Below, piece by piece: positions 12,925 to 60,420 of a DNA stretch of 64,000 bases; the stretch's first letter is position 1, and each line of letters starts with the position of its first letter. The notes beneath the pieces were generated by a model. That model was not told where the DNA came from. It saw only the letters and a list, made by a program, of their open reading frames with translations, and searched no databases. The DNA is from Isoetes taiwanensis. Taxonomy: Eukaryota > Streptophyta > Lycopodiopsida > Isoetales > Isoetaceae. The translations under genes were made by a program, and so were the position numbers. The stretch lies in NCBI GenBank assembly GCA_021234155.1, contig JAJEKV010000001.1:25657189-25721188 (forward strand), given 5' to 3'.

Positions 12925-14259
12925 TCAATTTGTAGTGTTTGCATGAAAAGGTTTGAGGCGAAAACTATTAACCAAGGTGGGTAATGGAGAGCCATCTAAC
13001 TCTGCAAGTTGAAATACACTTGGTTGGACCACTTGAAGAATTTGATAAGGGCCAAGCCACCGAAACTTCAGCTTCCCTGGAAAATTTTACCTGGAATCGT
13101 AAAGAAGAACCAAATCCCCTTCCTTGAAATTTTTTGTTCTGATTTGTTTGTCATGCCAGAATTTTCGTAACTGTTGCCTAGCAAAAACTCTGAAATAAGC
13201 ATCATGGCGAAGCTCATCTAATTGTTGCAACTGATAAACACACTCTTGTAGATCAGCAGGAGTATCATGCACAGTAGCAAGTTGGAAACGAAGAGACAGT
13301 AGAACAAACTCAAAAGGCATTAAAGCTTTCTTGACCATAAATCAATTTAAATGGTGTCTGTCCTGTAGCAATCTTGTAACTAGTGTTATAAGCCCATAAA
13401 ACAGTAGGTAATTTTTTATGTCAATCGGTTCTGGAAGCGTCACAAATTTTCTTTAAAATGTTGATGAGGATCTTCTTTCTGCTTTCAACAAGACCATTGC
13501 CTTGTGGATAATAACAAGTACTCTTTCGATGGTGAATATACAAGTAATCCATCAATTCTTTGATCGTCTGCTTAACGAAATGAACACCTCGATCACTAAC
13601 GAGTTCCATGGGGCAGCCAAAGCGTGTAATGACATGCGTGTAGAGTACCCTTGTCGTGCTGGCAATAGTGTTATCAGGTAGGGTACAGGCCTCCACCCAC
13701 TTTGTTGCATAATCAGTAAGTACAAGGATGTATCGAGCATGAGAGTATCGAGCAGGTGGATCCATAGGCCCAATAAAATCCATTTCCCATTTGCTGAAAG
13801 GTAATAGCGTCGCAACTGGAGTTAAAGGTAAAGCATCACGGGTCGTGGGTCGTCCCACGCGCTGACAGATATCACAGTTGCGCGCATGAGTGTGGGCATC
13901 TTTGAACAGCAAGGGCCAGAAATAGCCAGCCAGAAGGATTTCGTGTTACTACCACTAAAATGTCCTCCACCAAGACCTTCGTGGGCTTGGCGAACAATCT
14001 CCAGGACTTCATGAGGAAGAACATACCTGCACAAAACCATATCCTTGCCATGCTTATAAGGATGTCCAGCGACCATGGTATAGTCACGAGCTTCACGAAG
14101 GTACTGCTGACGGTGTAAGCAAAGCTTCTCAGGAGGGAGCGTGGGGTCTTCTGCCAGTAATGCACCAGAGAGAAGATATTGTTGATAGTCATGAAACCAA
14201 TGGGACATGGCCGTGACCAAGAAAAGTTGAGCATCTGGAAAAGTATTAGAAACACCCAT
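12925..14259 (-). pseudogene. Integrase domain and C-terminal tail of the Ty3 pol
   Basis: The zinc-binding region shows HEGLGGGH, then a frameshift near 13935, then CDIC. The catalytic core keeps Asp in MDFIGPM, Asp in LVSDRG and Glu in NGLVES with normal spacing. A TGA at 13421-13423 replaces an expected Trp just after the core. A further shift precedes the block LMPFEF..LSLR. The tail RWLGPYQI..V.PSVFQLAELDG, with LPTLVN and LKPFH, is the common end of plant Ty3 pols and stops at 12925. The protein would insert element DNA into the chromosome; this copy cannot be made whole. Confidence 0.85.
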
Positions 14260-14884
14260 GGACGGGTCATCTGTTGTGGATGCATGAAAGATAATCAGGC
14301 ATGACATGAGATTTGCCTGCCTTATGAATGATTTCAAAGGGAGAAAACTCTTAGAGAAGCAGTACCTAGCGGGCAATACGTCTCATGGGCATGGTCTTGT
14401 TGATCAGATAGAGCAAGGCTTGATAATCAACAAAGAACTTGATTTTACTATCCAATAGGTAGTGACAGAACCGTTGTACACAAAAGATGAGTCCAAGCAC
14501 TTCACGTTCTGTGGCAGAATAATTTGTCTCGGCAGGGTTGAGTTTCCTGCTTGCATACCGAATAGGCTTGTCACTGTGAGAATCATATTCTTGGGAAAGA
14601 ACAGCACCAATAGCAAAAGCTGAAACATCAACATGGATATGAAATGATTTGTACCACTGAGGTGGAACAGGAATAGGGCCTTGAATGAGCAGAACCTTCA
14701 ATTTTTGAAACGCCGCATCTGCCTGGAAATTCCAAGCCCAAGTGGATTCATCACCCGTGAGTTTATGAATGGGATCCGCAATGGCAACTAGTCTAGGAAT
14801 GAAGGTTGTATAATAATTTATCTTGCCAAGGAAGGAGCGGGTTTCCTTAATGTTGGAAGGTGTTTGAGCTTTGAGCACGCAGCT
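14260..14884 (-). pseudogene. RNase H domain of the Ty3 pol
   Basis: The connection block TRSFLGKINYY..FIP leads into RNase H with HVDVSAFAIGAVLSQ (first Asp), ATEREVL (Glu) and FVDYQAL (Asp; the usual wording is TDH). The frame is interrupted by TAG at 14366-14368 and TAA at 14351-14353, at sites where family members carry Trp and Gln. Beyond them it continues with HKAGKSHVMPDYLS, the usual end of the domain, so the two stops are single-base decay. Confidence 0.8.
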
Positions 14885-15350
14885 GATTTTTGCAGGGTCC
14901 GTGATAATGCCATATTTACTAACAACGTGGCCAAGAAGAACTCCTGAAGTAACACATAAAGTGCACTTCTTTGGATTCTAACTAATACCAGATTCATCTC
15001 ATTTTTGAAAAACTAACTTCAGTTTGTCGAGATGATCATCCATAGAGCTGTAAGCAGAAAAGTCATCTTGGAAGATTTGCAGAAAAGCATTTTCTTTCAT
15101 GTAATCCTGAAAAACAAAAAGCATAATGCATTGAAAAATGGAAGGAGAGTTGCACAATCCAAAGGGCACCACTTTATAAGCAAAAGTGCCCCATGGCACG
15201 ATGAATGTAGTTTTCAACTGATCTTCCACTTTAATAGAAATTTGATTGTAGCCAGAGAAACCATCCATGAAGGAGTACATCTCGGCCAGCTACTTCTTCA
15301 AGAACTTGATCTGTGAAGGGTAGCGGAAAATAATCTCATTCCGTGGGAGG
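14885..15350 (-). pseudogene. Reverse transcriptase domain of the Ty3 pol
   Basis: The first recognisable block is LPFTDQVLEEVAG (about 15337-15299), in another frame from the next block FMDGFSGYNQI (from about 15268), so a shift lies between them. WGTFAYKV.PFGL and PS.FQ follow. The catalytic YxDD box appears as FQDD at about 15090: the usual aliphatic or Val position is Gln, while both aspartates remain. After a stop near 14997 the frame resumes with the NPKKC.L and GHVVSKYGI blocks typical of the thumb. Known function: copying element RNA into DNA in the particle. Confidence 0.85.
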
Positions 15351-38378: not shown

Positions 38379-39230
38379 ATAGAATAGAATATACATTAAT
38401 GTCCCTTGTGCCGCGAGGCCCCTGGACTTGTGTAGCATGGGCGAGCTCCCTAAAAGGGCGCTACTAGCACATCACGCTGTTATGATGTAGCCTTTTTTGA
38501 AGGCTGACTTTTTCTTTTATTACCAGCATCCCGCTTTAAATCGGCTTCATGGCCGTGCAGTGATGCGTCGTTATCAATCAGCTTTTAGCTGAGCAATTTG
38601 TGTGGGGTTTTATGACCCGCTTTTGTACGGATCATATTACGAACCCTCTTTCACTGTGTACTTCTCTATGTCTGGTCAGCATTCTCTGGATCGCGTCTGC
38701 CAAATCTCGAAGCGATTCTGTTATTGTCATCAGAATGCATACCGGTTCCCCCCATCTTATGCCTCTGCATTTGTCTCTGATGTCTCCGTAAATCGGGCAG
38801 TCGCTAATCATGTGATTCTCATCCTCTACTCTCCCATCGTCACAGATTCTGCATATCCTGTCTTCCTTATCTATTCCTCTCCACCTGTCTTTTTCGATTC
38901 TTAGGTCATGACTGAATCTAGCCAGAATGTCTCTTCTAGTTTTCCCCAGTATGTTATCCCAATACATCTGGTGTCCTATTCGCTGGTCTGGGTTGAAAAC
39001 TTGCATGAGCCAGGCTGTCTTGGGTCCTGTGTGTCTTTGCAGCCACGCTCTTGGGGCTTTGTCTGCCCACTCCTCATTCCAGTGCCCTTCCTTTATTAAG
39101 TCGCTCAAGTTTAATCCCATCTCTCTGGTCCAGTTTGCCACATCTTTAAACCATCCACTGCCTATGAGGATGTGTGATTTTGCTGATTCGGTAATTGCAA
39201 TACTAGACAAGGTGTTAAAACCATATGTAT
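38379..39230 (-). mobile_element. Non-LTR retrotransposon (LINE), 5'-truncated, with ATTCT tail
   Basis: The minus-strand frame that ends at 38632 carries the C-terminal zinc-knuckle region of plant-type LINE reverse transcriptases: WADKAPRAWLQRHTGPKTAW, then ARFSHDLRIEKDRW, then CRICDDGRVEDENHMISDC (C-x2-C ... H-x4-C). After the stop a 3' untranslated region of about 230 bases ends in a (TATTC)n run at 38379-38395, the microsatellite tail left by target-primed reverse transcription. Upstream of about 39230 the homology ends, so the endonuclease and polymerase domains are missing. Confidence 0.75.
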
Positions 39231-39232
39231 AG
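38632..39232 (-). pseudogene. C-terminal fragment of LINE ORF2 (zinc-binding domain)
   Basis: About 195 residues of an originally much longer reverse transcriptase protein. The frame is open to the natural stop at 38632 with no internal break, so the insertion is probably fairly young. The apparent start near 39273 comes from flanking DNA and is not the true one. The C2HC-like knuckle probably helps bind the element RNA or the target; this is family knowledge. Confidence 0.7.
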
Positions 39233-39273
39233 TACAATATAACACCAAGTTGAATTATGGTGGATAATATCAT

Positions 39274-40470
39274 CCACTAGATAGTTATACACGTGCAGAT
39301 TATAATTATAGGCTACGACAAGAGTATACATAGAAGGACACATGTATTAAACATGTGGGTAGTGAGGATTATACAACACGGTAGGCAAGTATGAGCAATG
39401 CTATGTGGTTATGTGAAAGAATGATATGTGATTCTAGACTTAGGATTGGTTCACACATGTTACTATATCACATAATAACAAGGTAGCGGTCATGAATGTT
39501 GGAAAGTAGTATCAAATATTGCAGTAGTAATGATATTAAGGATGTCGACTGCGACATTCAGATTTATGTCGTACAGGAAAATAGTAAAATAGTCGTGCAA
39601 GACGAACGGAATGTTACATGATAAGGTTAGAAATAAGCATAACGGTATGCTTGTAGTCGAAGGTATTTAATGAGGTATGAAGGACCAGAGATAAGCATTG
39701 AAATTATCTCGATTGTTTGGGGTTGACTGACGTCGGTAAGTACAATATACTAAGGGATATGAAAGGTGTTCAAGTCAGGAAAATAGGCAGAGTAAGTCTA
39801 GCATATATGGCGACATTACATTCAAAAAGTATCCCGATGATGGTTGGAACGAAATGGAAATAACAAATAATAGGAGTTTGACTACTCAAAGGTTCTAGAG
39901 GCCAATGAATTGATTCAGCATTATAAGCTGAGAGTATCAAGTGGGTGTGGAAATAGCAGGATGGATGAATCCCTTCCAATAATGGAAGAAGATTAAGATG
40001 GTGTCTTTGCCAATTATATCCTTAGGGATAATTGACAAGAGGGCAATACATACCAGTTCCAAGTCCCAATAAGGAGCAAGACGAGGTGTATAGAAGAGAT
40101 GGGATGAGATTATATGAATCAATAGTCTATATATTCTGAGAATTTCCTTACTCTCGAGGGAGCAATGCTAAATCCCGAAGAAGTGGCTCAAGGATCGCTT
40201 GCCTTGAGGTAAACAGCTCCTATTAAAATGATTTTAAGACCTTTAAGACGATAAGGAATTGGGTAGTTCTATAGCGGTTGTTACGAAGGTGCGAACATAG
40301 GGGTTTCTATTATGAGATCGAGAGGGTTTAATGCCTTCGTCTCAGTATGAGGGAGCCAAGGACAACAACGTTTGAAACCAATCAAAAGTTGAAGGTGACA
40401 TGATAACTTAAAAAAAAATTGTGACAAAGCATGGTTGATATTGAGGAGACAAAGGATATTTAGTTGAAGG
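39274..40470. other. Non-coding, resembles interior of the LTR element at 49.3-51.7 kb in style
   Basis: No supported reading frame. Composition and word use resemble 49310-51750, but I could not align the two by eye. Confidence 0.3.
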
Positions 40471-40514: not shown

Positions 40515-41601
40515 TTATGGTATAATCCCGTGGGCTTTTGCAAGCTGCACTTCATTGTTTGCAACCTCAGCAGCTATAGTGGCCACCTGTTGAACTATCC
40601 CCTCATCTATTGGGCCACCCCCCATTTCAACAAGGGCTTTGAGCATGTACTCTGCCATGTCTTTCTCTCTCTCCAAGCTCAGTAGTTCAGCAGAGGCACC
40701 AACATCAGGACCTATGACTGCTTGAAGATGTGAGATGTTGTCTTTAATTTTCTGCAATTTCTCTTGTGAAGCCGAGAAGAAAGCTCCCTTAGCCTGGGAC
40801 TGGACAACTAGCTCCTTCTTGGAGACTAAATCAGCCTGCTGCGTGTTTAGGGTTTCCTGCAACTCTGTGCACATGACTTTCAGGCGTGATATGTTCTCCC
40901 CATAAGCTGTGTAAGCTGTTGGGCACATTGCAAAGCTCCTAATGGACGGCCTCCCTTCTAATTTAATACCAGTGCCTCCTGAAACTGGCCTTTCTGCTAT
41001 GCTTTCAGGTGCTGTGGTTTGCTGGGATTTGCTGACCTCTGCTCTGCTTGCTGGAGCACTGCTGGTGGGTTCACTTTTAACCTTGCTGCTGTAGGCTCTA
41101 CTCTTTGCTTTTACAAGCTGGCTGCCCAATTAACCTTGAACTTCGTGGATCCCGCTTTGCTCTCGTGCGTTATTGAATGCAAATAGGTATGATAATTGTC
41201 TTTCTAACTTCTCCGTTCTTCAACCCGTCCAGTATATTTTGCTCGGTTCTATTAGAGCTTCTTCGTTGCTCGCCTTACATTGTCAATGGAAGTTTTGCCA
41301 GGAATGACCCCGTTGGTATCCCAAACTTCATTGTACTCTGCTGCAGATATGAGATCTGTTCGAAATTGAGAGGGATGAACACCCTCGTTTGGCAGACCCG
41401 CATACGCATGGAAGTCTTCTTCGGTTCGGCAATCAGCCAAGGGAACGTTTCTTCTGGCCTGGAAGAATGCAAGAAAATCGAATTAACAGGGTTGAACCCT
41501 AAACCCATAGAAATTTTGTTTTGTTGCTTTTTGCTTACCCGGCAAATGGGTTCCGTTGGAATTACTGCTTGAGCGGGCGGATCAATCACCTTCTTTACCA
41601 T
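40515..41601 (-). CDS. Multi-exon coiled-coil protein, unknown function
   Basis: Exon 1 probably starts at ATG 41601 (MVKKVIDPPAQAVIPTEPIC) and ends at a CCGG|GTAAGC donor near 41539. Exon 2 begins after cattcttccag near 41463 with ARRNVPLADCRTEEDFHAYA and runs to a GTAAGG donor near 41285. The last exon (about 41115-40515) encodes a Ser/Thr-rich region followed by an ~80-residue helical coiled coil and ends at 40515. The reading phase between exons 2 and 3 is not resolved, so coordinates are approximate. A ctatatag word at 41837-41844 could be the TATA box. The family is not recognised. The intact exons and clean splice sites make this one of the few plausible working genes here. Confidence 0.5.
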
Positions 41602-41928
41602 GGTTGATCTGTTTGTTTAATGTGGAAATCCGAGAGCACAAATTCGCGGGTTGCTTGGCCGGAACAGAGAAAGTTGGGGAAGAGAGATTTGGAAAAACAC
41701 AAATTCGAAAGTTCGTTCGTTTGTCTAGTGGTTCCAGATTGCAGGGGTCGCATTCATTACCGGGGGCGGCAAACAGGTAATGATTGTATAAACGGGTACC
41801 GGCTAGACGAATAGAAGGGCAGAATATAGGTGGTACTATATAGGTGAAGGGTGGGAAAAAAATGTTTGAAGGGTGGAAAACAATGTATTTTGGGTGCTGG
41901 TGCTGGTGCTGGGGTCGCGTTTTTTTGC

Positions 41929-41951
41929 TACCCACCAGCATACTTTCACCC
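41929..41951 (+). repeat. 23-bp direct repeat, left copy
   Basis: Identical to 49284-49306 over 23 bases, with the preceding tttg also shared. Together the pair brackets the RING/FCP1 gene and the DDE-like gene. Confidence 0.8.
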
Positions 41952-41959
41952 TGACCCAT

Positions 41960-42860
41960 TTAATCCTTCAGATATCTTTTAACCCTCTTGTTTCCTTTTA
42001 ACCCACCATTATATGTCGTACGATACAATAGTCTCTGCCTTAAAATTTGCATCTATGTCTTTAAATTTCCCTGTATCTATTTAACCCGCATATCATTGGG
42101 GGTTATCATTTACCGTCGTTATCCACCTTAGAACTATTAAACGTTATGTCCCTCTGTGTTGCCGTCATGCCGCTATGCCGGCATTACAAATACTTGGCAT
42201 ATTTCCATAAGCCATAGTCATGTTTTGATTTAGGGAGTGAGCCTTTGTGAAATTTGTAAGTTACCTAGACTCATCATGGCGCCTGCCTTGCCTTTTCTAA
42301 TTCTATCTAAACCCCCACGTCTGATATTCTCTAGACAGTTAATTTCCTGCCACCCCGGCTTGCATTGTGTTCTAGCCCTAGACATTTAAAATTATAACTC
42401 GCATAACCCATTGACTTCGACTCTTCCTTATCCAAGCAGGCATCATGTTAGATATCTATCCTTTCATGTTTCCACAACCACATTTGATTTATCATTAGGT
42501 AAATGTTATTTGTCATCCAGCCAAGAATTGTACTATCGTACTATTCAGCCCCACCATCTTGAGCTTTATTCTATTGCCCATTGACATTTATTTCAAGTGC
42601 CAACTATAGCATTTTACCTTAACATGCAACAGATTGACTGTTGCTTGCATATTCCAAACATACTCCAGACCCTTCAGTGGTAACTTTGGGGTAAACTTGT
42701 CCTTCTCTCCCCGTATCACTGCATAGATTACCTCTCCAAGATGTTTAACCTATGGTCCATAGTACGTACGTGATAAACATATGTCCTCATCCCACAATTA
42801 TACTAGAGCTCTGCTCTAACTTAGCTAAAGTGTAAGCTTGGTAGTTCCTTAAAACAAAAC
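41960..42860. other. Upstream region of the RING/FCP1 gene
   Basis: A pyrimidine-rich, non-coding stretch between the left 23-bp repeat and the first plausible exon. It may hold a promoter and 5' introns, but no element stands out. Confidence 0.3.
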
Positions 42861-42863
42861 CTA

Positions 42864-45345
42864 TTGCCTATGTACCTTTATAATGTGGCTGAGCCATCGA
42901 CTTCCCAACTGGGTAGTGGCCAACTCCTTGTTGGAATTCTATATGCTGCCTATAGTTTGATAGGATCCTCAGCTACTTCAACCATTCCTTTAGTGCCTTA
43001 TGGTACTCCAGTCGTGTACATAAACTATGATCCTCCCAAAGCATTTACAGAATCTCAACAGGCTTAGGGAACTTACAAGGAGAGCTGGCCAGCTTGTGAG
43101 CATCTATCCTATGACATTCAGGTTGCCAATTGGAGATGAGGAGAGATGCTCCACATGCGGGCTGGCATTCCAGGATGATTACACCCTAAGTCTGAAGCTG
43201 AAATGTGGCCACGTATATCATGTCAGCTGCCTGAGTTTGCTTATGGAGAAGACACACTGCCTCAAATGCTTAGAAACAGTTCCAGCAGGCTTAGTGGAGG
43301 AATTGGGGAAGACAGTCAAGCAGGAACCCTTATATGCTGGGGCAGCACACAAACACATAGTTGAGACAATTGACTTAGATGAGGTGGTAGCTACAACTCC
43401 AGACAGCAACAGGAAAAGGAAGCATGTGAAAACACCTCTTAGTAAAAGGACCCCCGGACACAAGTCTACAAGGACTCGAACTCCACAAGCAAGAACAGCC
43501 AAAAAAGGTACACGTTTGTTTCCTGAAGTGGGTACATTAGAAGCGCCTGTAGACAATGAACAACATGAGGCAAGCAGTCAGCAGCACAATGCAGCACCTG
43601 AAAGCACTGTGCTAAAGACACCAACACGGTCCAAAGCAGATTCCAGTAGTTCTGACGATGCTGAGAAATACAATATAGTTCCAAATTCTGCAGCAACCTC
43701 TACAAAGGCCTCCTCTAACACTGTTGTTGCAGGGGAAGACAAGGATGTTGAAGACCCGAATATAGTGGATAAGCAGGGTGTGGCCCGAATCACAAGGCTC
43801 ACAAGGTCCAGGACCAAAAATGTTATAGAGCCCGAGAGTGAGGGTGAGTCAGATGATTCGGTTGATGAGGACGTGCCTATAGACGTGGCACTAGGAAAAA
43901 AACCCTCAGTCTAATGTAATTTATATGTACTTGTTTCAGGCCCAATTTTGTTTGCACAAGACTTGCCAAAACGATCAGTTAAAAGGTTTTTGTTTAATAC
44001 CAGAATATATTTATTTTCCCCCATTGTGTCCTTGTAAAATTTGTTTCGAGTTTCAACCTAGGGATCAATATGCATTTGCCTGCAGAAGGAGAAGGCAGAC
44101 ACAAGTGGTGCTTACTGAATCTGAAGCTGAAGATAGTGAGAGAACCCAGACAGATAATGAAGAAACCAAAGTGCAAAAACAACCTATTACATATAAAAGG
44201 TGCAATCCAATATTTAAGATCAAGCAGTTATTTTACTTGTCTTATTTCACTTGGCATAATGTTCTGCAAGTTTCAGTTGGTAATTGTAGCACCACTTTTG
44301 ATTTTGCAGGAGACCAAGGAAAGTAGTTTCTGTGGACAGGGTTGATAAACCACCTAGTCCCCTAAGCCACCACTTGGTAAGGGTTACTGATAGCCAGGAA
44401 ACACCCATACATTGGGGGCAGGGAGATACTAATAATGATGCATCTAACTATGGCTATCAGCACTCTCCATCATCTGGTAGCAAAGATAAACCAGAGTCCA
44501 GCAGGTCGGAGCAATGTCCAGCACGTCCAGATAGCACTTCCCTGCAGAGTCCAGCACAGACAAGCACGATGCAGCAGACATCGACAGTTGTTGCAAACAT
44601 CGTGGGATGGACACCCAGACGGAAGTTGATGGTGCTTGACATAAATGGTGTACTGGCACAGACACAACAGAGGAGAATGAACCAAAAAATCTTGCATCCA
44701 CCACAAACGAACCATGTTGTAAAAGAAACTGCAAGTAAGTACCTCATTTGCAGACCAGGGTATCATGAGTTTGTGGAGTGGGCACTGCAGAGGTTTGATG
44801 TTGTGATTTGGAGTGCTTCTCTACTTCGGAATACAAGGGATATGGTGGATGCATTGTTCCCTGATTTGCAGACCAGATTCTTGAAGATATATGGTCAAGA
44901 ACATTGCTATGCATGCGAGCATCCAACCAGCACAGAAAAGCAACTTTTTTTCAAGGAGTTGAAGGTTGTACTTGAGGATTTTCCTCAATATCATGGTATG
45001 ATTTTCTTGGTTGATGACAGCCTACACAAAGGGTTTCTAAACCCTGCACACACAACCGTTCCTGTTATGCCTTTCAAGGGGCAAGAAGAGGACAATTTTT
45101 TGCAGAAGTTTGTGTGTCCAGCTTTGGAATACTTGTCTTCTCATACAGTACAGGAAACGATCTCACAAATTGATTTCACTGATGCATGGTTGGCCCCGGA
45201 GACAGTTGCAGTGCTGGATTACTGTCTCAACAACTACCTTGTCTCGGCCTACTATATCCTCAATGCTCCTCTTGAAGTACAAAGGCAGCTGTTGGGCACC
45301 CTTCCTGGCGACGAGCATGACTTTGAAGACTTCGATGACTCATGA
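42864..45345 (+). CDS. RING-H2 plus FCP1/NIF phosphatase-like domain protein
   Basis: Exons: a possible 5' exon at 42864-43065; 43051 to about 43850, in phase after the acceptor gcatttacag; about 44090-44201; and 44311-45345. The last two join in frame (AAAAG|GTGCAA ... TTTGCAG|GAGACC gives TYKRRPRKVV). The N-terminal exon holds a complete C3H2C3 RING-H2 finger (C41, C44, C60, H62, H65, C68, C78 and C81 of the 43027 frame), the signature of a ubiquitin E3 ligase, then a long Ser/Thr/Lys-rich linker. The C-terminal part is an FCP1-homology (HAD) domain: motif I D103-I-N-G, IWSAS, K208 in FFKEL, and D228-D229. Motif I has Asn where phosphatases use the second Asp, as in some plant FCP1-like proteins, so the activity may be altered. 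It ends DFEDFDDS, an acidic tail. The exon junction near 43850 is uncertain. Confidence 0.65.
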
Positions 45346-45652
45346 AGTAACCATTGTATACTACGTTTTTGTAATATATATGCATGATTACTTTGTGTTA
45401 TCTTGAGTATTGATTGAGTGATCTTATAAGATGTCTCTAATCTTGAGTGTACAATTTTCTGTAATATATATCAAGCTTACTCTCCAATACTACAAGCATT
45501 GTTTCCAATACTAAAATACTCTAATACAGCAGCCCAATACTACAAAACTTGTCTCACAAGCATTGTCTCCAATATAATGATCAAAATTTGAGACAAGTAC
45601 ACAAGTAACTACAGACCTGTCAAAATGATAAAACAACTAGGTCAAAGCATAT
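45346..45652. other. Convergent intergenic region
   Basis: About 300 bases between the stop of the RING/FCP1 gene and the stop of the DDE-like gene. It is AT-rich, with several tgtaatatatat words and repeated caatactacaa words, and is probably shared 3' untranslated sequence. Confidence 0.5.
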
Positions 45653-48600
45653 TCAACCTTCATATGGCAGACTGTCAAGGATCATCTGGTGAGTAGCCTG
45701 ATCAAGGGAAAATCTGTTGGTGCCAGGAATCTGATTCATCTCAAACTTGATAGCTGATACGTGATGACTGTACTGGAAGGTCAGGCCTTTGTCTTCAAGT
45801 AGCTCCCAAGTACCATCGGGCTGGACAACATAGTACAAACCAGCCAACACATGTTCATCGACATTGAAGGTCTGACCCCAGCTATCCTTGACAATTACAT
45901 CCAAGGATATGCCTCGACTTAACACATTTCACCACGTAGAAATCTGCATTCTCCCGATTTCCCTCCTCACTACAAAGAAAGTTATCACCTTCCTCTATGT
46001 TTCCACTAAGCCATTCTCCATCACCTTCAAAAAATGCCTCATCGATTTCGTCTTCAATACCTTCACCAGTAGACTTTTCTGGCTTTAGAGTAACATATTT
46101 CTAATTCTTTAACCTCCGCTTGTTCACACAAGATGACCAGTTTCCTTTCAAACAGTTACCACAGAAACAACTTAAACCTCTATGAGCCACCCTTGTGCTT
46201 GATTTGGCCAAGTATGTCCTGAAGCTGTGTATAATCTTGGTCCCTTCTACCCTGGCACAGTCCAGCCGGTCTGTCCTATCAACATCATCCTTTCCAATGA
46301 ACCATAAGTGCCTGCAAAAAGCCAGCAACAAGTATTGCAGTTCACATACAGTATAGAGGCACAATACAGCAATACACAGCAGATAAAAGCAGATGAAAGC
46401 ACTTTTTAAAGCAGATGAAAGCACTTTTTAAAGCAGATGAAAGCACGTTAAAAGCAGATGAATGCAGATGAAAGCATATTACCTCTTGATGTCCCCGTTG
46501 CTGGCACCTTCATTCCAACGCGTAGCGAATTCCACGGTGCATCGGCACCCCTAAATCTCACTCCATCATACTTGAGCTGCTCTCTAGTGAATGCCCCTTT
46601 AAGGACTGCCCCTTGCCCATCGTGCTCTCCCTTACCATGGGCTGTCCCAAAGAAATTCCATATTATTTCCTTCCCTAGCTCGTGGTGATATCTTGGTAGG
46701 AAATAGAATGGCGAAGCAGATTTGAATTGGCTAGAACAACCATCGACCAAACTATATGCCCGGAGAATTCTACACCATTTGATACTAGCCATGAATTGTG
46801 CTTTCTAAGACAAAGGTTTGCACAAAAAGAGTGTCATGAATCTTGTCATCACTCAAGTAAAAATGGGTTTCCTTCAATAGCTTTTCGATCCCGAGTCATT
46901 TGTCCATCCTATAATGATGTGGGCGAGAATTGTTATCGGTCATTGTGCCAATCTTTGGCTTTGAACCTCCCTTTGTATTTTTATGTTGTAATTCTCTCGC
47001 AAAAATCAATTCTGAAAACAATGGTGCCATCTTGGATATTGTCCGGGCAATTCCTCGAATTGCATGGCCTGCCATCTAGCCCTCAGAATTGTGTGGGCAC
47101 GAATATCTTCATTGTGGAACACGATATGAAATGAAATCCTTCACTTTGCCGTTCTCTTGTAAGACAATCTAAGGACCGGCTTTGGTCCCTTTTTTTTTTT
47201 TCTTGTCATTTGAGGTCTCATCTTGTGCTTGCAGCTTCAGTCAGGTCCCACCAAATGCCTTGGATTTCTTACTTTTGTTTCCCTTCTTCTCAACTTGTGT
47301 TGCGACTTCGGTCAGGTCCCACCAACTACCTTGGATTTCTTACTTTTGTTTCCCTTCTTGGTGGCATTGGATCTTTTTCTTTTCTGCCCACATGGCACTT
47401 CCTTGGTAACGCAGGTTTAACTCCACCCGACTTCTTCGTCTCCACCGGAATCAGAACAAGGTCAGTAGCATATATTACAAAAGATTAGCGCATGTTGAAA
47501 GCACAAAAGCAGTATTCAGCGGATGACAGCACATATCAGCATGCTTCAGCAAGCAATAAAGAGAGTATTACCTTTTCAAACGTCTTCCATTCAAACAAGA
47601 ACTCATGATTCTCTCTTTCTCTTGGACATATAGGAAGACTTTTTATGCCACACTTCTGACATGTCTGCATCAAGCAGTCATGTTTATACCATTCTTCACC
47701 CTCGCTCTTGTTGCAAACCACAGCCCTCCAGAGCTCGCTGGTTGAGTCATACGTATGTTGGCTGGCCAGACAATTCTCACCAGGTCCACAGACCTCGCAG
47801 GTGCACTTGCACTCTTCACCATGGAATCCAGTTTTCGCTGACCTTAATGCATTCAGTGCTACCCTGGCATACTCCAACTTCATATGGTATATGCAACAAC
47901 AGGTTTCCCTTTCTGATACTTTCTTTACATAAATATGCTTCAACTTCTCGAAAGCCTTTAAGCAAACAGGGTGTTCAGGATGTGCCTTTTTGTATTGTTG
48001 ATATAGCTGCAGCTGAATGGTGGCCTTTGGTTAGGAATATTTATGCAATAATAGCAAAAAAAAAAGAATGTATGGAAACTTGTACCTGTGTGACCTCCAT
48101 AAGGTGCAAGGGATAAGAAATTCGGAAGCCTGACTCTCCAACAGTGTTCACAACATCTTTCTTGCAAGGAGAGACTCTGCTATTTTGTTTCCAAAATTCT
48201 GTTATGCTTTGCTTGCAAGCAGGGGTGAGAGAATCGCACCTCAACCTCCTTTGGAAACAAGACCACAGACCATTTCCAGCTTCCGATTTCCTTAATGCAG
48301 CAGTTGCAATAGTTGACCTCATGCAACCTATCATAAGAAATATTGCACATTAATCAATGAACATATCCCAGCCAGCATCACTCAGCAGATACAAGCACTT
48401 GAAAGCATGAAGAAGCACAGGCATGAAAGCAAGAATTAGATGTACCTAACAGCCCTGCCATAGTGGAATTGCATCTCGATTTTGTGGAAGAAGCCATCAC
48501 AAGTGTAGAGGTTCTGGCTCTCCAAATATCATGGTTCCTTTGCCTCTTTGTGGATGCCATTGTCTGTTTCAAGTTGTTGAGCAAAGACACCCCGCCTTTG

Positions 48601-49000
48601 CACTCCTTTGGATTTGGCAAAATTCCAGTTCCGAGATTTCCATTTAGGTTGGTGATGAACCACCCTCTTCATCACATCGGCCTTGAGTTGGGTGAATGCT
48701 TTTTGGTGAGCTTATTGAAGTAATCAACTACTTGCTTGGCTATTTCTTGCCTGCGTCTCATGCTCGAATCCTCCCGCTCAACCGCCGCTTTTTCATCTTA
48801 TTCCGTAATCAGATTCTCTCTTTCTCGGCGCATCCAATTTCTTGTAAATTGCAGAGGAAACTGGATCTTCACGTGATATTTCCTGTGTTGCATTGACATC
48901 CAATAAATCTGGAACACTGTATTGGGATTCATCAGGCCGAAAATCCAATGCTAAACGTGTGATTGCCTCCAGGCCGGTATCAGGGAGCGCCATGAAATTC
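45653..49000 (-). pseudogene. DDE-like transposase gene, multi-exon, decayed (copy 1)
   Basis: Likely exons: first exon from ATG about 48992 (MALPDTGLEAITRLALDF); 48325-48088, ending at CACACAG|GTACAAG; 47989-47570 from CATTCAG|CTGCAG to GAAAAG|GTAATAC, with Cys-rich knuckles (CKCTCEVC, CQKCG); a middle part with DFCENYN near 47010 and SDDKIHDTLFVQ near 46850; 46780-46474 with DGCSSQFK, WNFFGTAHGKGEHDG and LKYDG, ending AGAG|GTAATA; 46316-46105; and a last exon to 45653. The D-F-x-E-N-Y, SDD..HD, DG.SSQF and HGKG..DG.GA order matches a family of transposase-like RNase H-fold proteins seen in plants and invertebrates; I do not assign a superfamily name. Frameshifts lie near 46900 and 46540, with several stops near 46980-46900. 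Confidence 0.6.
47234..47366 (+). repeat. Tandem pair, ~74-bp period, inside the DDE-like gene
   Basis: Two units share cggtcaggtcccaccaa, then ccttggatttcttacttttg and tttcccttctt. On the gene strand they encode a Lys-rich patch (KKGNKSKKSK), perhaps a nuclear-localisation region or an intron-derived repeat. Confidence 0.75.
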
Positions 49001-49255
49001 CTGAGAGAGGGAGGATAAGTGAATTGGAGGGAGAATTTTCGCGGGCCATGACGAAGTAATCCAATTTGCAACGTACTACCACACGACTCGCGCGAAAATC
49101 TAGCCAAAATCCCACAATCATTTCCCTAACGGTTCGTTCATGAGGTGGACGTGTGAGTACATGAAGGGCGTAAAAAAAATGACGGGCAGTTACACCCATC
49201 AGCACCCAGATTAAGCAAAAGCAGGGGTGCTTTAAGCGGGCTAAAACCCTGCTAT

Positions 49256-49279
49256 AAGCATGCGTCCGAACGCATGCTT
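49256..49279. repeat. Perfect 10-bp hairpin beside the right 23-bp repeat
   Basis: aagcatgcgt pairs exactly with acgcatgctt around ccga. It ends 4 bases before the 23-bp direct repeat at 49284, which makes this boundary look like a structured element end. Confidence 0.75.
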
Positions 49280-49283
49280 TTGA

Positions 49284-49306
49284 TACCCACCAGCATACTT
49301 TCACCC
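49284..49306 (+). repeat. 23-bp direct repeat, right copy
   Basis: Identical to 41929-41951. It lies just upstream of the DDE-like gene start, at the junction with the LTR-element interior. Confidence 0.8.
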
Positions 49307-56503: not shown

Positions 56504-57490
56504 TTCAAGGCACTTGTGCTCATCATATTTGCAAATGAAGACAATACATCATTTTTTCTTCAGTGAGCTCAAGAACATTCCAAACAAAGATGGAAATTTT
56601 AATGATGGTAGTAATTGTATGAACTTGATGCAGATGGAAAAAATGGCTCCTCCTCATTTGGCAATTCAGCTCCATCAAGATTATTGGCATAAAGCGGACT
56701 CGCCATGGTGCTATGTTGGGGAACAGATGCACGTGCACTCATATCAAGTTGGCCTCTCATTTTCATCTCGGCAAGTCGCAATTGCAATTGCTCCTTCCTA
56801 TCGGAAATTTTCAATTGCAATTGCTCAGCCCGCTCAGTTGCTTCTCTCTTCTGTTGCAACTCAATTGCCTTCAAATCCTTTTGTATGGCTGTGATGTTCG
56901 TAAGAGCATCTGCGACAATGGATGCTGCACCTCGAATAACTTCATTATTGCGCTTTGATTTCGTCTTCTTTCCACAAAGACTGGAGCTCCCTTTCTTAGC
57001 AACAACTAGATTCCTTTCCATCCTTCTTTGTTGTGTGCTGACAATCATCGGGAGTCTCTTCACTATCATCATCCAGCGCAATGACTCGTGCGTCCTGGGA
57101 ATCTAAATTAATAACTGGGGGACTGCCTGGCTGCTCACTTTGGGATGATCCCTTTTGCCTCTTCCCAAGAACTTTATGGATATCTTTTTAGCACGCTTCC
57201 TACTCCCACTTGCATTGGAGTCAGAATTTGACTGTGATCTGAACCTAATATCAGTTGTGCCTCTTGGCAATCCACCACATTTGGCTGAGGTACCAAGGAT
57301 GGCATCTATCTGATCAAAGTATTGGCAAGTGCTTGGCGTGTCTCCAGTTCCATTTTCTTGATCTCTTTTCTTCTTATACCTCATGATCATGAACTCAAAT
57401 TCTTCATTTGTTTGCCCTCATACTTCGTATTAGATTCCTTGTTCAAGCGAGATGCAATCAGATGATGATGCTTGCACCCTAAAGAACAAA
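56504..57490 (-). pseudogene. Myb/SANT-like exon, tandem unit 1 (3'-most)
   Basis: About 987 bases and homologous to the next three units. The trihelix half (MRYKKKRDQENGTGD) is at about 57390, then a Ser-rich linker with a frameshift near 57180 and a break near 57090. The C-terminal Gln/Arg coiled coil (ELQQKREATERAEQLQLK) is open from 57081 to 56599 and ends SSSYNYYHH, probably the true C-terminus of the ancestral protein, because the other units stop earlier at LDGA. Confidence 0.65.
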
Positions 57491-58470
57491 TTCACGGCAC
57501 TTGTGCTCACCATATTTGCAATTGAAGACAACACATCATTTTTTCTTCAGTGAACTCAAGAACATTCCAAAAAAGATGGAAAACTTAATGATGGTAGTAA
57601 TTGTATGAACTTGATGCAGATGGAAAAAGTGGCTCCTCCTCATTTGGCAATTAAGCTCCATCAAGACTATTGGCATAAAGCGGACTCGCCATGGTGCTAC
57701 GTTGGGGAGCAAATGCACGTGCATTCATATCAAGTTGGACTCTCATTTTTATCTCGACAAGTCGCAGTTGCAATTGCTCCTTCCTATCGGCAATTTGCAA
57801 TTGCAATTGCTTAGCCCGCTCAGTTGCTTCTCTCTTCTGTTGCAACTCCATTACCTTCAAGTCCTTTTGTATGACTGTGATGTTCGTAAGAGCATCTGCG
57901 AGAATGGATGCTGCACCTCGAACAACTTCATCATTGCGCTTTGATTTCATCTCCTTTCCATGAAGACTGGAGCTCCCTTTCTTAGCAATAACTAGATTCT
58001 TATTTCCATCCTTGTTTGGTGTGTGCTGACAATCATCGGGAGTCCCCTCGCTATCATCGTCAAGCGCAATGACTCGTGCGTCCTGGGCATCTAAATTAAT
58101 AACTGGGGGACTGCCTGGCTGCTCACTTTGGGATGATCTCTTTTGCCTCTTCCCAAGAACTTCTTGGATCTCTTTTTGAGCACGCTTCCTACTTCCACTT
58201 GCATTGGAGTCAGAATATGACTGTGATCTGAACCTAATATCAGTTGTGCCTCCTGGCAATCCACTGCACTTGGTTGAGGTACCAAGGATGGCATCTATCT
58301 GATCAAAGTATTGCCAAGTGCTTGGCGTGTTTCCAGTTCCATTTTCTTGATCTCTTTTCTTCTTATACCTCATGATCATGAATTCAAGGCGATTCTTCAC
58401 TTGTTTGCCCTCAATTCCTTGTTCAAACGAGATGCAATCAGATGATGATGCTTGCACCCTAAAGAACAAT
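57491..58470 (-). CDS. Myb/SANT-like exon, tandem unit 2 (open throughout)
   Basis: This unit carries the longest intact frame of the array (58514-57651, 287 codons, starting just inside unit 3). Order: QVKNRLEFMIMRYKKKRD.. TWQYFDQIDAIL (third helix of a Myb/SANT-like or trihelix DNA-binding domain), a Ser/Lys-rich nuclear-type linker (SGSRKRAQKEIQEVLGKRQK), an acidic patch (ALDDDSEGTPDD), then a long Gln/Arg coiled coil. A deletion in the helix-2 region makes its N-terminus differ from units 3 and 4. Whether it is translated on its own is unknown. Confidence 0.55.
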
Positions 58471-59447
58471 TTCACGGCACTTGTGCTCACCATATTTGCA
58501 ATTGAAGACAACACATCATTTTTTCTTCAGTGAACTCAAGAACATTCCAAATAAAGATGGAAAACTTAATGATGGTAGTAATTGTATGAACTTGATGCAG
58601 ATGGAAAAAGTGGCTCCTCCGCATTTAGCAATTAACCTCCATCAAAATTATTGGCATAAAGCGGACTCGCCATTGTGCTATGTTGGGGAGTAAATGCACG
58701 TGCATTCATATCAAGTTGGACTCTCATTTTCATCTCGGCAAGTCGCAATTGCAATTGCTCCTTCCTATCGGCAATTTGCAATTGCAATTGCTCAGTCCGC
58801 TCAGTTGCTTCTCTCTTATGTTACAACTCCATTACCTTCAAATTCTTTTGTATGAATGTCTGCGAGAATGGATGCTGCACCTCGAACAACTTCATCATTG
58901 CGCTTTGATTTCATCTTCTTTCCACGAAGACTGGAGCTCCCTTTCTTAGCAACAGCTAGATTCTTCTTTCCATCCTTCTTTGGTGTGTGCTGACAATCAT
59001 CGGGAGTCTCCTCGCTATCATCGTCAAGCGCAATGACTCGTGCGTTCTGGGCATCGAAATTAATAACCTGGGGACTGCCTGACTGCTCACTTTGGGATGA
59101 TCCCTTTTGCCTCTTCCCAAGAACTTCTTGGATCTCTTTTTGAGCACGCTTCCTATTTCCACTTGCATTGGAGTCAGAATCTGACTGTGATTTGAACCTA
59201 ATATCAGTTGTGCCTCCTGGCAATCCACCGCACTTGGCTGAGGTACCAAGGATGGCATCTATCTGATCAAAGTATTGCCAAGTGCTTGGCGTGTCTCCAA
59301 TTCCATTTTCTTGATCTCTTTTCTTCTTATACCTCATGATCATGAACTTAAGGCGATTCTTCACTTGTTTGCCCTCATACTTCGTATTAAATTCCTTGTT
59401 CAAGCGAGATGCGATCAGATGATGATGTTTGCACCCTAAAGAACAAA
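58471..59447 (-). pseudogene. Myb/SANT-like exon, tandem unit 3
   Basis: The frame is open from the helix-2 block (IASRLNKEFNTKYEGKQVKN, about 59420-59350) through the linker to about 58870. There a deletion of about 20 bases, relative to unit 2, shifts it into a stop at 58816. The coiled-coil half remains readable in another frame. Confidence 0.65.
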
Positions 59448-60420
59448 TTCACGGCACTTGTGCTCACCATATTTGCAATTGAAGACAACACATCATTTTC
59501 TCTTCAGTGAACTCAAGAACATTCCAAACAAAGATGGAAAACTTAATGATGGTAGTAATTGTATGAACTTGATGCAGATGGAAAAAGTGGCTCCTCCTCA
59601 TTTGGCAATTAAGCTCCATCAAGACTATTGGCATAAAGCGGACTCGCCATGGTGCTACGTTGGGGAGCAAATGCACGTGTATTCATATCAAGTTGGACTC
59701 TCATTTTCATCTCGGCAAGTCGCAATTGCAATTGCTCCTTCCTATCGGCAATTTGCAATTGCAATTGCTCAGCCCGCTCAGTTGCTTCTCTCTTCTGTTG
59801 CAACTCCATTACCTTGAAATCCTTTTATATGACTGTGATATTCGTAAGACGAGAATGGATGCTGCACCTCGAAAAACTTCATCATTGCACTTTGATTGCA
59901 TCTTCTTTATACGAAGACTGGAGCTCCCTTTCTTAGCAACAGCTAGATTCTTCTTTCCATCCTTCTTTGGTGTGTGCTGACAATCATCGGGAGTCTCCTC
60001 GCTATCATTGTCAAGCGCAATGACTCGTGCGTCCTGGGCATCTAAATTAATAATTGGAGGACTGCCTGGCTGCTCACTTTGGGATGATCCCTTTTGCCTC
60101 TTCCCAAGAACTTCTTGGATCTCTTTTTGAGCACGCTTCCTACTTCCACTTGCATTGGAGTCAGAATCGGACGGTGATCTAAACCTAATATCAGTTGTGC
60201 GTCCTGGCAATTCACCGCACTTGGCTGAGGTACCAAGGATGGCATTTATCTGATCAAAGTATTGCCAAGTGCTTGGCGTGTCTCTAGTTCCATTTTCTTG
60301 ATCTCTTTTCTTCTTATACCTCATGATCATGAACTCAAGGCGATTCTTCACTTGTTTGCCCTCATACTTCGTATTAAATTCCTTGTTCAAGCGAGATGCG
60401 ATCAGATGATGATGCTTGCA
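59448..60420 (-). pseudogene. Myb/SANT-like exon, tandem unit 4 (5'-most)
   Basis: It follows exon 1 directly and in the same frame, broken by a TGA at 60421. The frame is open to about 59860, where a 7-base deletion relative to unit 2 shifts it; the coiled coil then continues in another frame (59809-59609). Helix residues HHLIASRLNKEFNTKY complete the DNA-binding domain begun in exon 1. Confidence 0.65.

What the first reader, a model, noticed from the sequence alone, without database searches (positions are those of the whole stretch)
42864..45345. Unusual fusion of a RING-H2 finger with an FCP1/NIF phosphatase-like domain
A complete C3H2C3 RING and an FCP1-homology domain appear to be encoded by one spliced plus-strand gene; the last intron joins its exons exactly in frame. 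A protein that could both ubiquitinate and act on phosphorylated targets (for example RNA polymerase II CTD) is unusual. Motif I reads D-I-N-G rather than D-x-D, so the phosphatase half may be a binder or pseudo-enzyme.
Basis: partly seen in the sequence, partly recalled or inferred. Interest (0 to 1): 0.75.

Follow-up and report, generated by a model that had tools for sequence, protein, structure and literature searches.

The report
Jumping gene carrying RING–phosphatase-like protein
The RING plus FCP1-like gene is real, but it is the second gene of a cut-and-paste transposon with very many copies in this genome, and the copy in this window appears broken by an inversion.

Summary
The RING-H2 and the FCP1/NIF domain are both present and share one frame: pieces 43040-43843, 43940-43985, 44086-44199, 44310-45345, three GT-AG introns, one terminal stop. 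But this is not a host gene of the extent claimed. It is one gene of a ~7.7-kb DNA transposon with terminal inverted repeats (GGGTGAAAGTATGCTGGTGGGTA), 4-bp target duplications and a convergent, DDE/D-like transposase gene. The end repeat occurs 643+666 times, control 0+0. The RING and NIF exons give 136 and 124 matches, lower bounds.

In this copy an inversion (40531-43039) flipped the left end and the gene's 5' part; 42864-43039 is flanking DNA and the gene is headless.

N-domain–coiled coil–RING–NIF recurs in two more divergent families of this genome, one shown to have its own inverted repeats, 4-bp duplications and a related transposase. Median dN/dS of both halves is below 1. D-x-N-G in motif I marks a whole NIF clade, so it is not local decay. 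A Sola-like transposon is my guess; superfamily and accessory role are unproven.

The parts
40531..41951 (-). 5' part of the transposon (left inverted repeat, upstream region, first exons of gene 1 with N-terminal domain and coiled coil), inverted in this copy
   Evidence: blastn against 5 other copies: the reverse complement of this stretch joins 43040 in 5 of 5 and in 4 of 4 more
41929..41951 (-). left terminal inverted repeat, now in the same orientation as the right one
   Evidence: no match in the 5 copies compared; 41952-41955 TGAC (reverse complement GTCA) matches the right flank GTCG in 3 of 4 bases
43040..43843 (+). gene 1, internal exon (its 5' end cut by the inversion): end of coiled coil, RING-H2, linker
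43147..43269 (+). RING-H2 finger, first to last zinc ligand
43940..43985 (+). gene 1, 46-base exon
   Evidence: splice sites and frame; 49 bases, an in-frame difference, in copy C927 (by eye)
44086..44199 (+). gene 1, linker exon
44310..45345 (+). gene 1, last exon with the NIF/FCP1-like domain and the stop codon
44623..45141 (+). NIF (PF03031) domain; motif I D-I-N-G at 44638-44649
45653..49200 (-). gene 2: remains of the convergent transposase gene, in several short frames in this copy; limits approximate
   Evidence: window frames; homologous frames in other copies; genome search
49284..49306 (-). right terminal inverted repeat

Best explanation
The gene is gene 1 of a two-gene cut-and-paste DNA transposon; gene 2, on the opposite strand, is its DDE/D-like transposase. 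Gene 1 encodes an N-terminal domain, a coiled coil, a RING-H2 finger, a charged linker and an FCP1-like (NIF) domain with D-x-N-G in motif I. Shown here: repeat ends, target duplications, copy numbers, gene order, in-frame splice sites, recurrence of the architecture in three families, dN/dS below 1 in both halves, and the rearrangement that beheads the window copy. Inferred: that gene 2 is a transposase (motifs and position only), and that the gene 1 protein serves the transposon, as a coiled-coil dimer whose RING recruits a ubiquitin-conjugating enzyme and whose NIF domain binds (or weakly dephosphorylates) a phosphorylated nuclear host protein, so that a host factor is marked for removal or the transpososome is helped. 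The window copy is a remnant whose 5' exons are no longer in line with the rest.
For: Shared unit: left end found in 5 of 5 copies and right end in 4 of 5 (C1054 lacks it). End repeats 643 forward + 666 reverse with up to two mismatches against 0+0 for the reversed control; among the places printed there, 13 facing pairs lie 7.2-7.8 kb apart (counted by eye). Perfect 4-bp target duplications in 10 of 10 copies other than the window with both ends read: C1040 TATA, C1018 AACT, C1035 ATCA, C927 TGTG, L040 CTTA, L041 CATA, L042 TCCT, L043 TGAT, L066 ATAA, L067 CATA; window 3 of 4 bases. Order among listed matches: 49 of 136 RING matches have a NIF match downstream on the same strand within 4 kb (chance about 0.04; 2 pairs in wrong order or strand); 55 of 124 NIF matches have the transposase downstream on the other strand (0 wrong); second family, 61 of 97 N-domain/RING matches have NIF downstream (0 wrong). 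Cross-family BLASTP: N-domain 36%, RING 41%, NIF 28%, transposase 47%. Median pairwise dN/dS: RING 0.13, NIF domain 0.46; 0.32 and 0.59 in another set of 18 rows. Between L064, L066, L067 and L068: NIF 0.16-0.31 (6 of 6 pairs), N-domain-RING 0.24-0.33 (5 of 6 pairs computable).
Against: No transcript or protein evidence. The transposase has no match above a Pfam cut-off and nothing better than E 0.49 among solved structures, so DDE/D is read from motifs only. Linkage is seen for under half of the listed matches of the first family; the lists hold only scored matches, so I cannot tell capping from decay. Many listed matches carry stops. The nucleophile Asp of motif I is lost in 6 of 28 rows and single RING ligands in 2-8 of 28. 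The constraint on the NIF domain is moderate (0.46-0.59), dN/dS is pairwise without a tree, and some between-family dS values are near saturation (up to 2.78). Ubiquitin ligase activity, phosphoprotein binding and benefit to the transposon are untested. The single-sequence model of the NIF domain failed (mean pLDDT 37.5).
Confidence: 0.8

Rival explanations
1. Passenger: the transposon captured a host RING-NIF gene once and amplified it without needing it.
For: Plant transposons are known for capturing genes (general knowledge). Many listed matches have stops. NIF genes of the ordinary D-x-D type exist in the genome.
Against: The same architecture occurs in three families with 28-41% protein identity to the window family and, for two of them, different repeat sequences. 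dN/dS below 1 in both halves within and between families.
Confidence: 0.1
2. Host gene: a RING-FCP1 fusion encoded at this locus and used by the plant.
For: The frame from 43042 to 45345 is open after splicing; splice sites intact.
Against: Multicopy and inside a unit with inverted repeats and a transposase-like gene; the gene's 5' part is inverted away.
Confidence: 0.03
3. Two adjacent genes, RING and NIF, that share the transposon but not a transcript.
For: The unspliced RING frame ends at a stop (43912-43914) in the window and a TAA stands at the same place in copy C927 of another subfamily (by eye). In 9 of 25 rows at least one of the three introns has a changed end.
Against: That stop lies inside an intron with GT-AG ends; three introns restore one frame in the window; the small exon differs in length by 3 bases, in frame, in C927 (by eye); the part of the last exon before the NIF domain has median dN/dS 0.61-0.69, weak but below 1.
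Confidence: 0.07

Closest known systems
Sola superfamily of DNA transposons
   Same: 4-bp target duplications, inverted repeats, size (most 2-9 kb), a DDD transposase, found in the moss Physcomitrella and said not to be common in flowering plants (PMC10741241, two passages); Physcomitrella and Capsicum in a table of PMC9033089 (passages); a Sola row in the repeat table of the fern Ceratopteris (PMC6890710, passage)
   Different: No Sola protein could be compared here. A RING-NIF gene is not mentioned in the passages seen. The DDD reading of our transposase motifs is mine, and its likeness to Sola is recalled.
FCP1/SCP/UBLCP1 phosphatases (PF03031)
   Same: Domain family by Pfam; weak match to UBLCP1 3shq (E 0.002); motif II Ser, Lys and motif IV Asp pair largely kept
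   Different: Second Asp of motif I is Asn (D-x-N-G); fused to RING; carried by a transposon
Plant HAD/NIF proteins with L-D-x-N-G (some Arabidopsis HAD superfamily proteins; recalled, from no call)
   Same: Same motif I variant, as recalled
   Different: Recalled as host genes without RING; relation not tested
Two-gene plant transposons (En/Spm TnpA, PIF/Harbinger Myb-like protein, MuDR mudrB, VANDAL VANC; recalled, from no call)
   Same: A transposase plus a conserved second protein
   Different: None is recalled to combine RING and NIF domains

Membership tests
Cut-and-paste DNA transposon | Terminal inverted repeats at the ends of a repeated unit | tested here: met
Cut-and-paste DNA transposon | Target site duplication of fixed length | tested here: met
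   4 bp, perfect in 10 of 10 copies other than the window with both ends read; in the window 3 of 4 bases, the left end being inverted
Cut-and-paste DNA transposon | Encoded transposase with RNase H-like DDE/D core | tested here: inconclusive
   D-bearing motifs (IDFAENY, WSDG, HGKG..DG) shared by two families; no Pfam match above cut-off and no meaningful PDB match
Sola superfamily | 4-bp target duplication | tested here: met
   definition from PMC10741241 (passage)
Sola superfamily | DDD transposase homologous to Sola transposases | not testable with these tools
   Repbase proteins are not held; Pfam gave no match above cut-off
RING-H2 E3 ligase | C3H2C3 ligand pattern | tested here: met
   All eight in the window; 20-26 of 28 rows per ligand; also complete in L066 and L068; L064 has Tyr for the first His and L067 Tyr for the sixth ligand (by eye); Pfam score below cut-off
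RING-H2 E3 ligase | Ubiquitin ligase activity | not testable with these tools
   needs an assay
FCP1/SCP-type phosphatase | NIF domain | tested here: met
   72.4 bits, cut-off 21.8
FCP1/SCP-type phosphatase | D-x-D-x-T/V motif I | tested here: not met
   D-I-N-G in the window; second position Asn in 23 of 28 rows, Asp in 2, other in 3; first Asp kept in 22 of 28; D-x-N-G is a clade feature

The most novel reading that the evidence does not exclude
A lineage of plant DNA transposons has as its standard second gene a ligase-like adaptor: a dimeric RING-H2 protein whose phosphatase-derived D-x-N-G domain reads a phosphorylated host nuclear protein, such as a polymerase or silencing factor, and directs its ubiquitination so that the element escapes silencing or completes transposition.
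Probability: 0.2. Interest if true: 0.85.

Novelty: new variant of a known kind. Interest (0 to 1): 0.58.

Why it matters
A RING–FCP1-like protein kept under constraint across diverged transposon families would be an unusual accessory protein for a DNA transposon, and would give a handle on how an element acts on host transcription or silencing. It also warns that RING–NIF 'genes' in this genome are likely transposon genes. Five paper searches bear on this (I saw the listings only: 20 of 25, 0, 15 of 2,490, 15 of 16 and 9 of 9 papers); no title or abstract start listed describes a transposon encoding a RING–NIF protein. The library is open-access only and Repbase was not searched, so it may be described elsewhere.

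Tried and rejected
Splice sites: a single intron 43844-44085 (GTGAGT to CTGCAG) was considered by hand from the alignment and rejected because the linker exon would then be read in another frame; the two-intron model fits. Structure: a single-sequence AlphaFold run of the NIF part failed, so no fold search was run. Close relatives of the transposase and of the NIF exon among viral contigs: pattern hits but none confirmed (single-protein queries reach close relatives only). Naming the transposase through Pfam or PDB: nothing above cut-off. Academ, KDZ, Chapaev, Ginger and Kolobok were considered from memory and set aside on target duplication length or ends; that is recall, not a test. Third D-x-N-G family (L062): no RING or this transposase among its long frames in the 6 kb read, so left out of the architecture claim. 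The dN/dS values are plain pairwise Nei-Gojobori estimates without a tree; pairs are not independent. One search used the rows with at most one stop (19 for RING, 17 for NIF, of 28 each). One search used 18 of 28 rows picked by eye for few CAG/CTG changes, stops not excluded. The intron alignment holds 25 of 28 rows: the script kept only matches spanning the region, so C1054, L040 and L061 are missing. Of the third family (L068) one copy was read, and its right end was not found.

Full report
1. The observation. The NIF domain is certain (PF03031, 72.4 bits, cut-off 21.8) and the RING has all eight C3H2C3 ligands, although Pfam scores it below threshold (zf-RING_2, 21.6 of 27.3 bits). The frame with the RING (43024-43914) ends at a stop before the NIF exon. 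An alignment of the intron region in 25 rows (window and 24 copies; 3 of 28 rows did not span it) led me to three introns, 43844-43939, 43986-44085 and 44200-44309. Joined, 43042-43843 + 43940-43985 + 44086-44199 + 44310-45345 of the window read in one frame with one stop, at the end; the join was made for the window only. All three introns have GT-AG ends in 16 of 25 rows; 9 of 25 have at least one changed end. So RING and NIF are predicted to lie in one protein. No RNA evidence exists here.

2. It is repetitive. NIF alone gives 151 matches (150 of 3263 candidates scored). The RING exon gives 136 matches (132 of 2557 candidates scored) and the NIF exon 124 (117 of 4787), down to about 50% and 60% identity; these are lower bounds, and one copy can give more than one match.

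3. It is a transposon. In five other copies the shared unit is the reverse complement of 41951-40531 followed by 43040-49306; the left end is found in 5 of 5, the right end in 4 of 5, C1054 matching only to 46809. The ends carry GGGTGAAAGTATGCTGGTGGGTA and its inverse, and perfect 4-bp direct duplications flank the unit: TATA, AACT, ATCA, TGTG, CTTA, CATA, TCCT, TGAT. The end sequence occurs 643 + 666 times with up to two mismatches, against 0 + 0 for the reversed pattern. On the other strand, matching 45.6-49.2 kb of the window, other copies carry frames of a second, convergent gene whose core exon has 151 matches, 150 of 7150 candidates scored. It has D-bearing motifs (IDFAENY, WSDGCSSQFK, HGKGEHDGQG) but no Pfam match above cut-off and no meaningful PDB match; 'transposase' rests on motifs, position and copy number.

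4. The copy in the window is broken. Both end repeats lie on the minus strand (41929-41951 and 49284-49306), whereas in the other copies with both ends they face each other. In 5 of 5 copies and 4 of 4 the sequences matching 40531 and 43040 adjoin. The simplest reading is an inversion of 40531-43039 that carried 1,088 bases of flank (41952-43039) inward. The bases beside the two ends, GTCA and GTCG, fit one old 4-bp duplication in 3 of 4 positions. Whether the inversion is in the plant or in the assembly was not tested.

5. The architecture recurs. A second family (L064) has on one strand an N-terminal domain, coiled coil, RING-like finger and a NIF domain with D-L-N-G, and on the other strand a related transposase frame. 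Two further copies (L066, L067) have 30-base inverted repeats, 29 of 30 alike, element lengths of 6.9 and 6.6 kb, and 4-bp duplications ATAA and CATA. A third (L068) has RING-H2, a NIF domain with D-V-N-G and a frame like the transposase C-terminus; its right end was not found. BLASTP: N-domain, C1040 against L064, 36% over 128; RING, window against L068, 41% over 90; NIF, window against L067, 28% over 205; transposase, L041 against L067, 47% over 147. In one search the N-domain/RING protein gives 97 matches (95 scored), the NIF part 138 (137 scored). Among listed matches, 49 of 136 RING matches have a NIF match downstream in order (2 pairs against order), 55 of 124 NIF matches have the transposase downstream on the other strand (0 against), 49 of 136 RING matches have the transposase within 6 kb so placed, 78 of 150 transposase matches have a listed RING or NIF match within 8 kb, and in the second family 61 of 97 have NIF downstream (0 against); chance for the first is about 0.04. 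I cannot separate capped lists from decay in the unlinked remainder.

6. Constraint. Median pairwise dN/dS among rows with at most one stop: RING 0.13, linkers 0.61-0.62, NIF domain 0.46, C-terminus 0.33. In 18 rows picked by eye for few CAG/CTG changes: RING 0.32, linkers 0.69, NIF domain 0.59, C-terminus 0.37; rows with stops and frameshifts are included there, which may raise the RING figure. Between L064, L066, L067 and L068: NIF 0.16-0.31 (6 of 6 pairs), N-domain–RING 0.24-0.33 (5 of 6 pairs; one saturated); the L068 pairs have dS of 1.7-2.8, and all comparisons with the window family are saturated. This points to selection on both halves, but the method is plain and the pairs are not independent.

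7. Motif I. D-x-N-G (one row D-T-N-G included) occurs in all 18 rows of one clade of the 27-row NIF tree (100/100); the other 9 rows have D-x-D. Several placements inside that clade rest on long branches. Among 28 rows of the window family the second position is Asn in 23, Asp in 2 and other in 3, and the first Asp is kept in 22. The change to Asn is therefore old. In HAD phosphatases the second Asp is the general acid/base (established knowledge), so weak or no turnover is expected; not tested.

8. What kind of transposon. The 4-bp duplication, size and presumed plant setting fit Sola as described in PMC10741241 (two passages), with table entries for Physcomitrella and Capsicum in PMC9033089 (passages) and for Ceratopteris in PMC6890710 (passage). 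Homology to Sola was not testable. I file it as a DNA transposon and treat Sola as a lead.

9. How it may work. Shown: composition, linkage, constraint. Inferred: the coiled coil dimerises, the RING recruits an E2, the NIF domain docks on a phosphorylated nuclear protein, and the protein helps the element either by removing a silencing factor or by helping the transpososome. I give this specific chain low confidence; that gene 1 serves the transposon I hold likely.

10. Novelty. Transposons with a second gene are known; a RING–NIF second gene was not seen in the listings of five searches of open-access papers (listings only, 15 of 2,490). Hence a new variant of a known kind. The window copy by itself is an ordinary broken copy.

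Noticed in passing
L040-L043, C1018 (L012-L013), L057, L060, L046 against window 43040-49306: In these copies the middle base of CAG/CTG is changed or lost more often than the middle of GAC/GTC and than other bases (L042 92/231, 17/137, 513/5898; L040 100/213, 22/129, 825/5484; L043 88/231, 24/137, 849/5899; L041 60/220, 23/133, 738/5607; L057 27/107, 7/58, 155/2112). Many other copies show no such excess (C1035 20/231, 14/137, 516/5899), and L047 none over its GWC control. Products are mostly CGG, CCG or CG, with CAA also common. It looks like systematic base-calling error at CHG-methylated sites, so stops and frameshifts in such copies may be false; not proven.
   Followed up: partly
L062 and L063 (C1027:14499700-14505700, C1043:12176700-12182700); also L024, L025, L032-L035: A third multicopy NIF family (D-M-N-G, once D-T-N-G). 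L062 and L063 share over 3.4 kb at 87% with other long frames beside the NIF gene, one with a methyltransferase-like motif by eye; Pfam gave nothing above cut-off for three of those frames. Possibly a different mobile element with its own NIF gene.
   Followed up: partly
window 56599-60420, minus strand: Four similar long frames in a row, apparently a tandem array; three of them carry a K-Q-V-K-N-R-L-x-F-M-I-M-R-Y-K-K-K-R stretch that looks Myb/trihelix-like by eye.
   Followed up: no
window 13421-14977, minus strand: Frames that look like Gypsy-type reverse transcriptase/integrase by eye; a 75% similar 2.4-kb stretch lies near the copy on C1054.
   Followed up: no
window 38632-39276, minus strand: Frame with a Cys/His-rich stretch near its end that looks like the C-terminus of a LINE-type protein (by eye).
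   Followed up: no
G000:C362:47702-48604: Two facing end repeats only 0.9 kb apart, so a short non-autonomous derivative probably exists.
   Followed up: no
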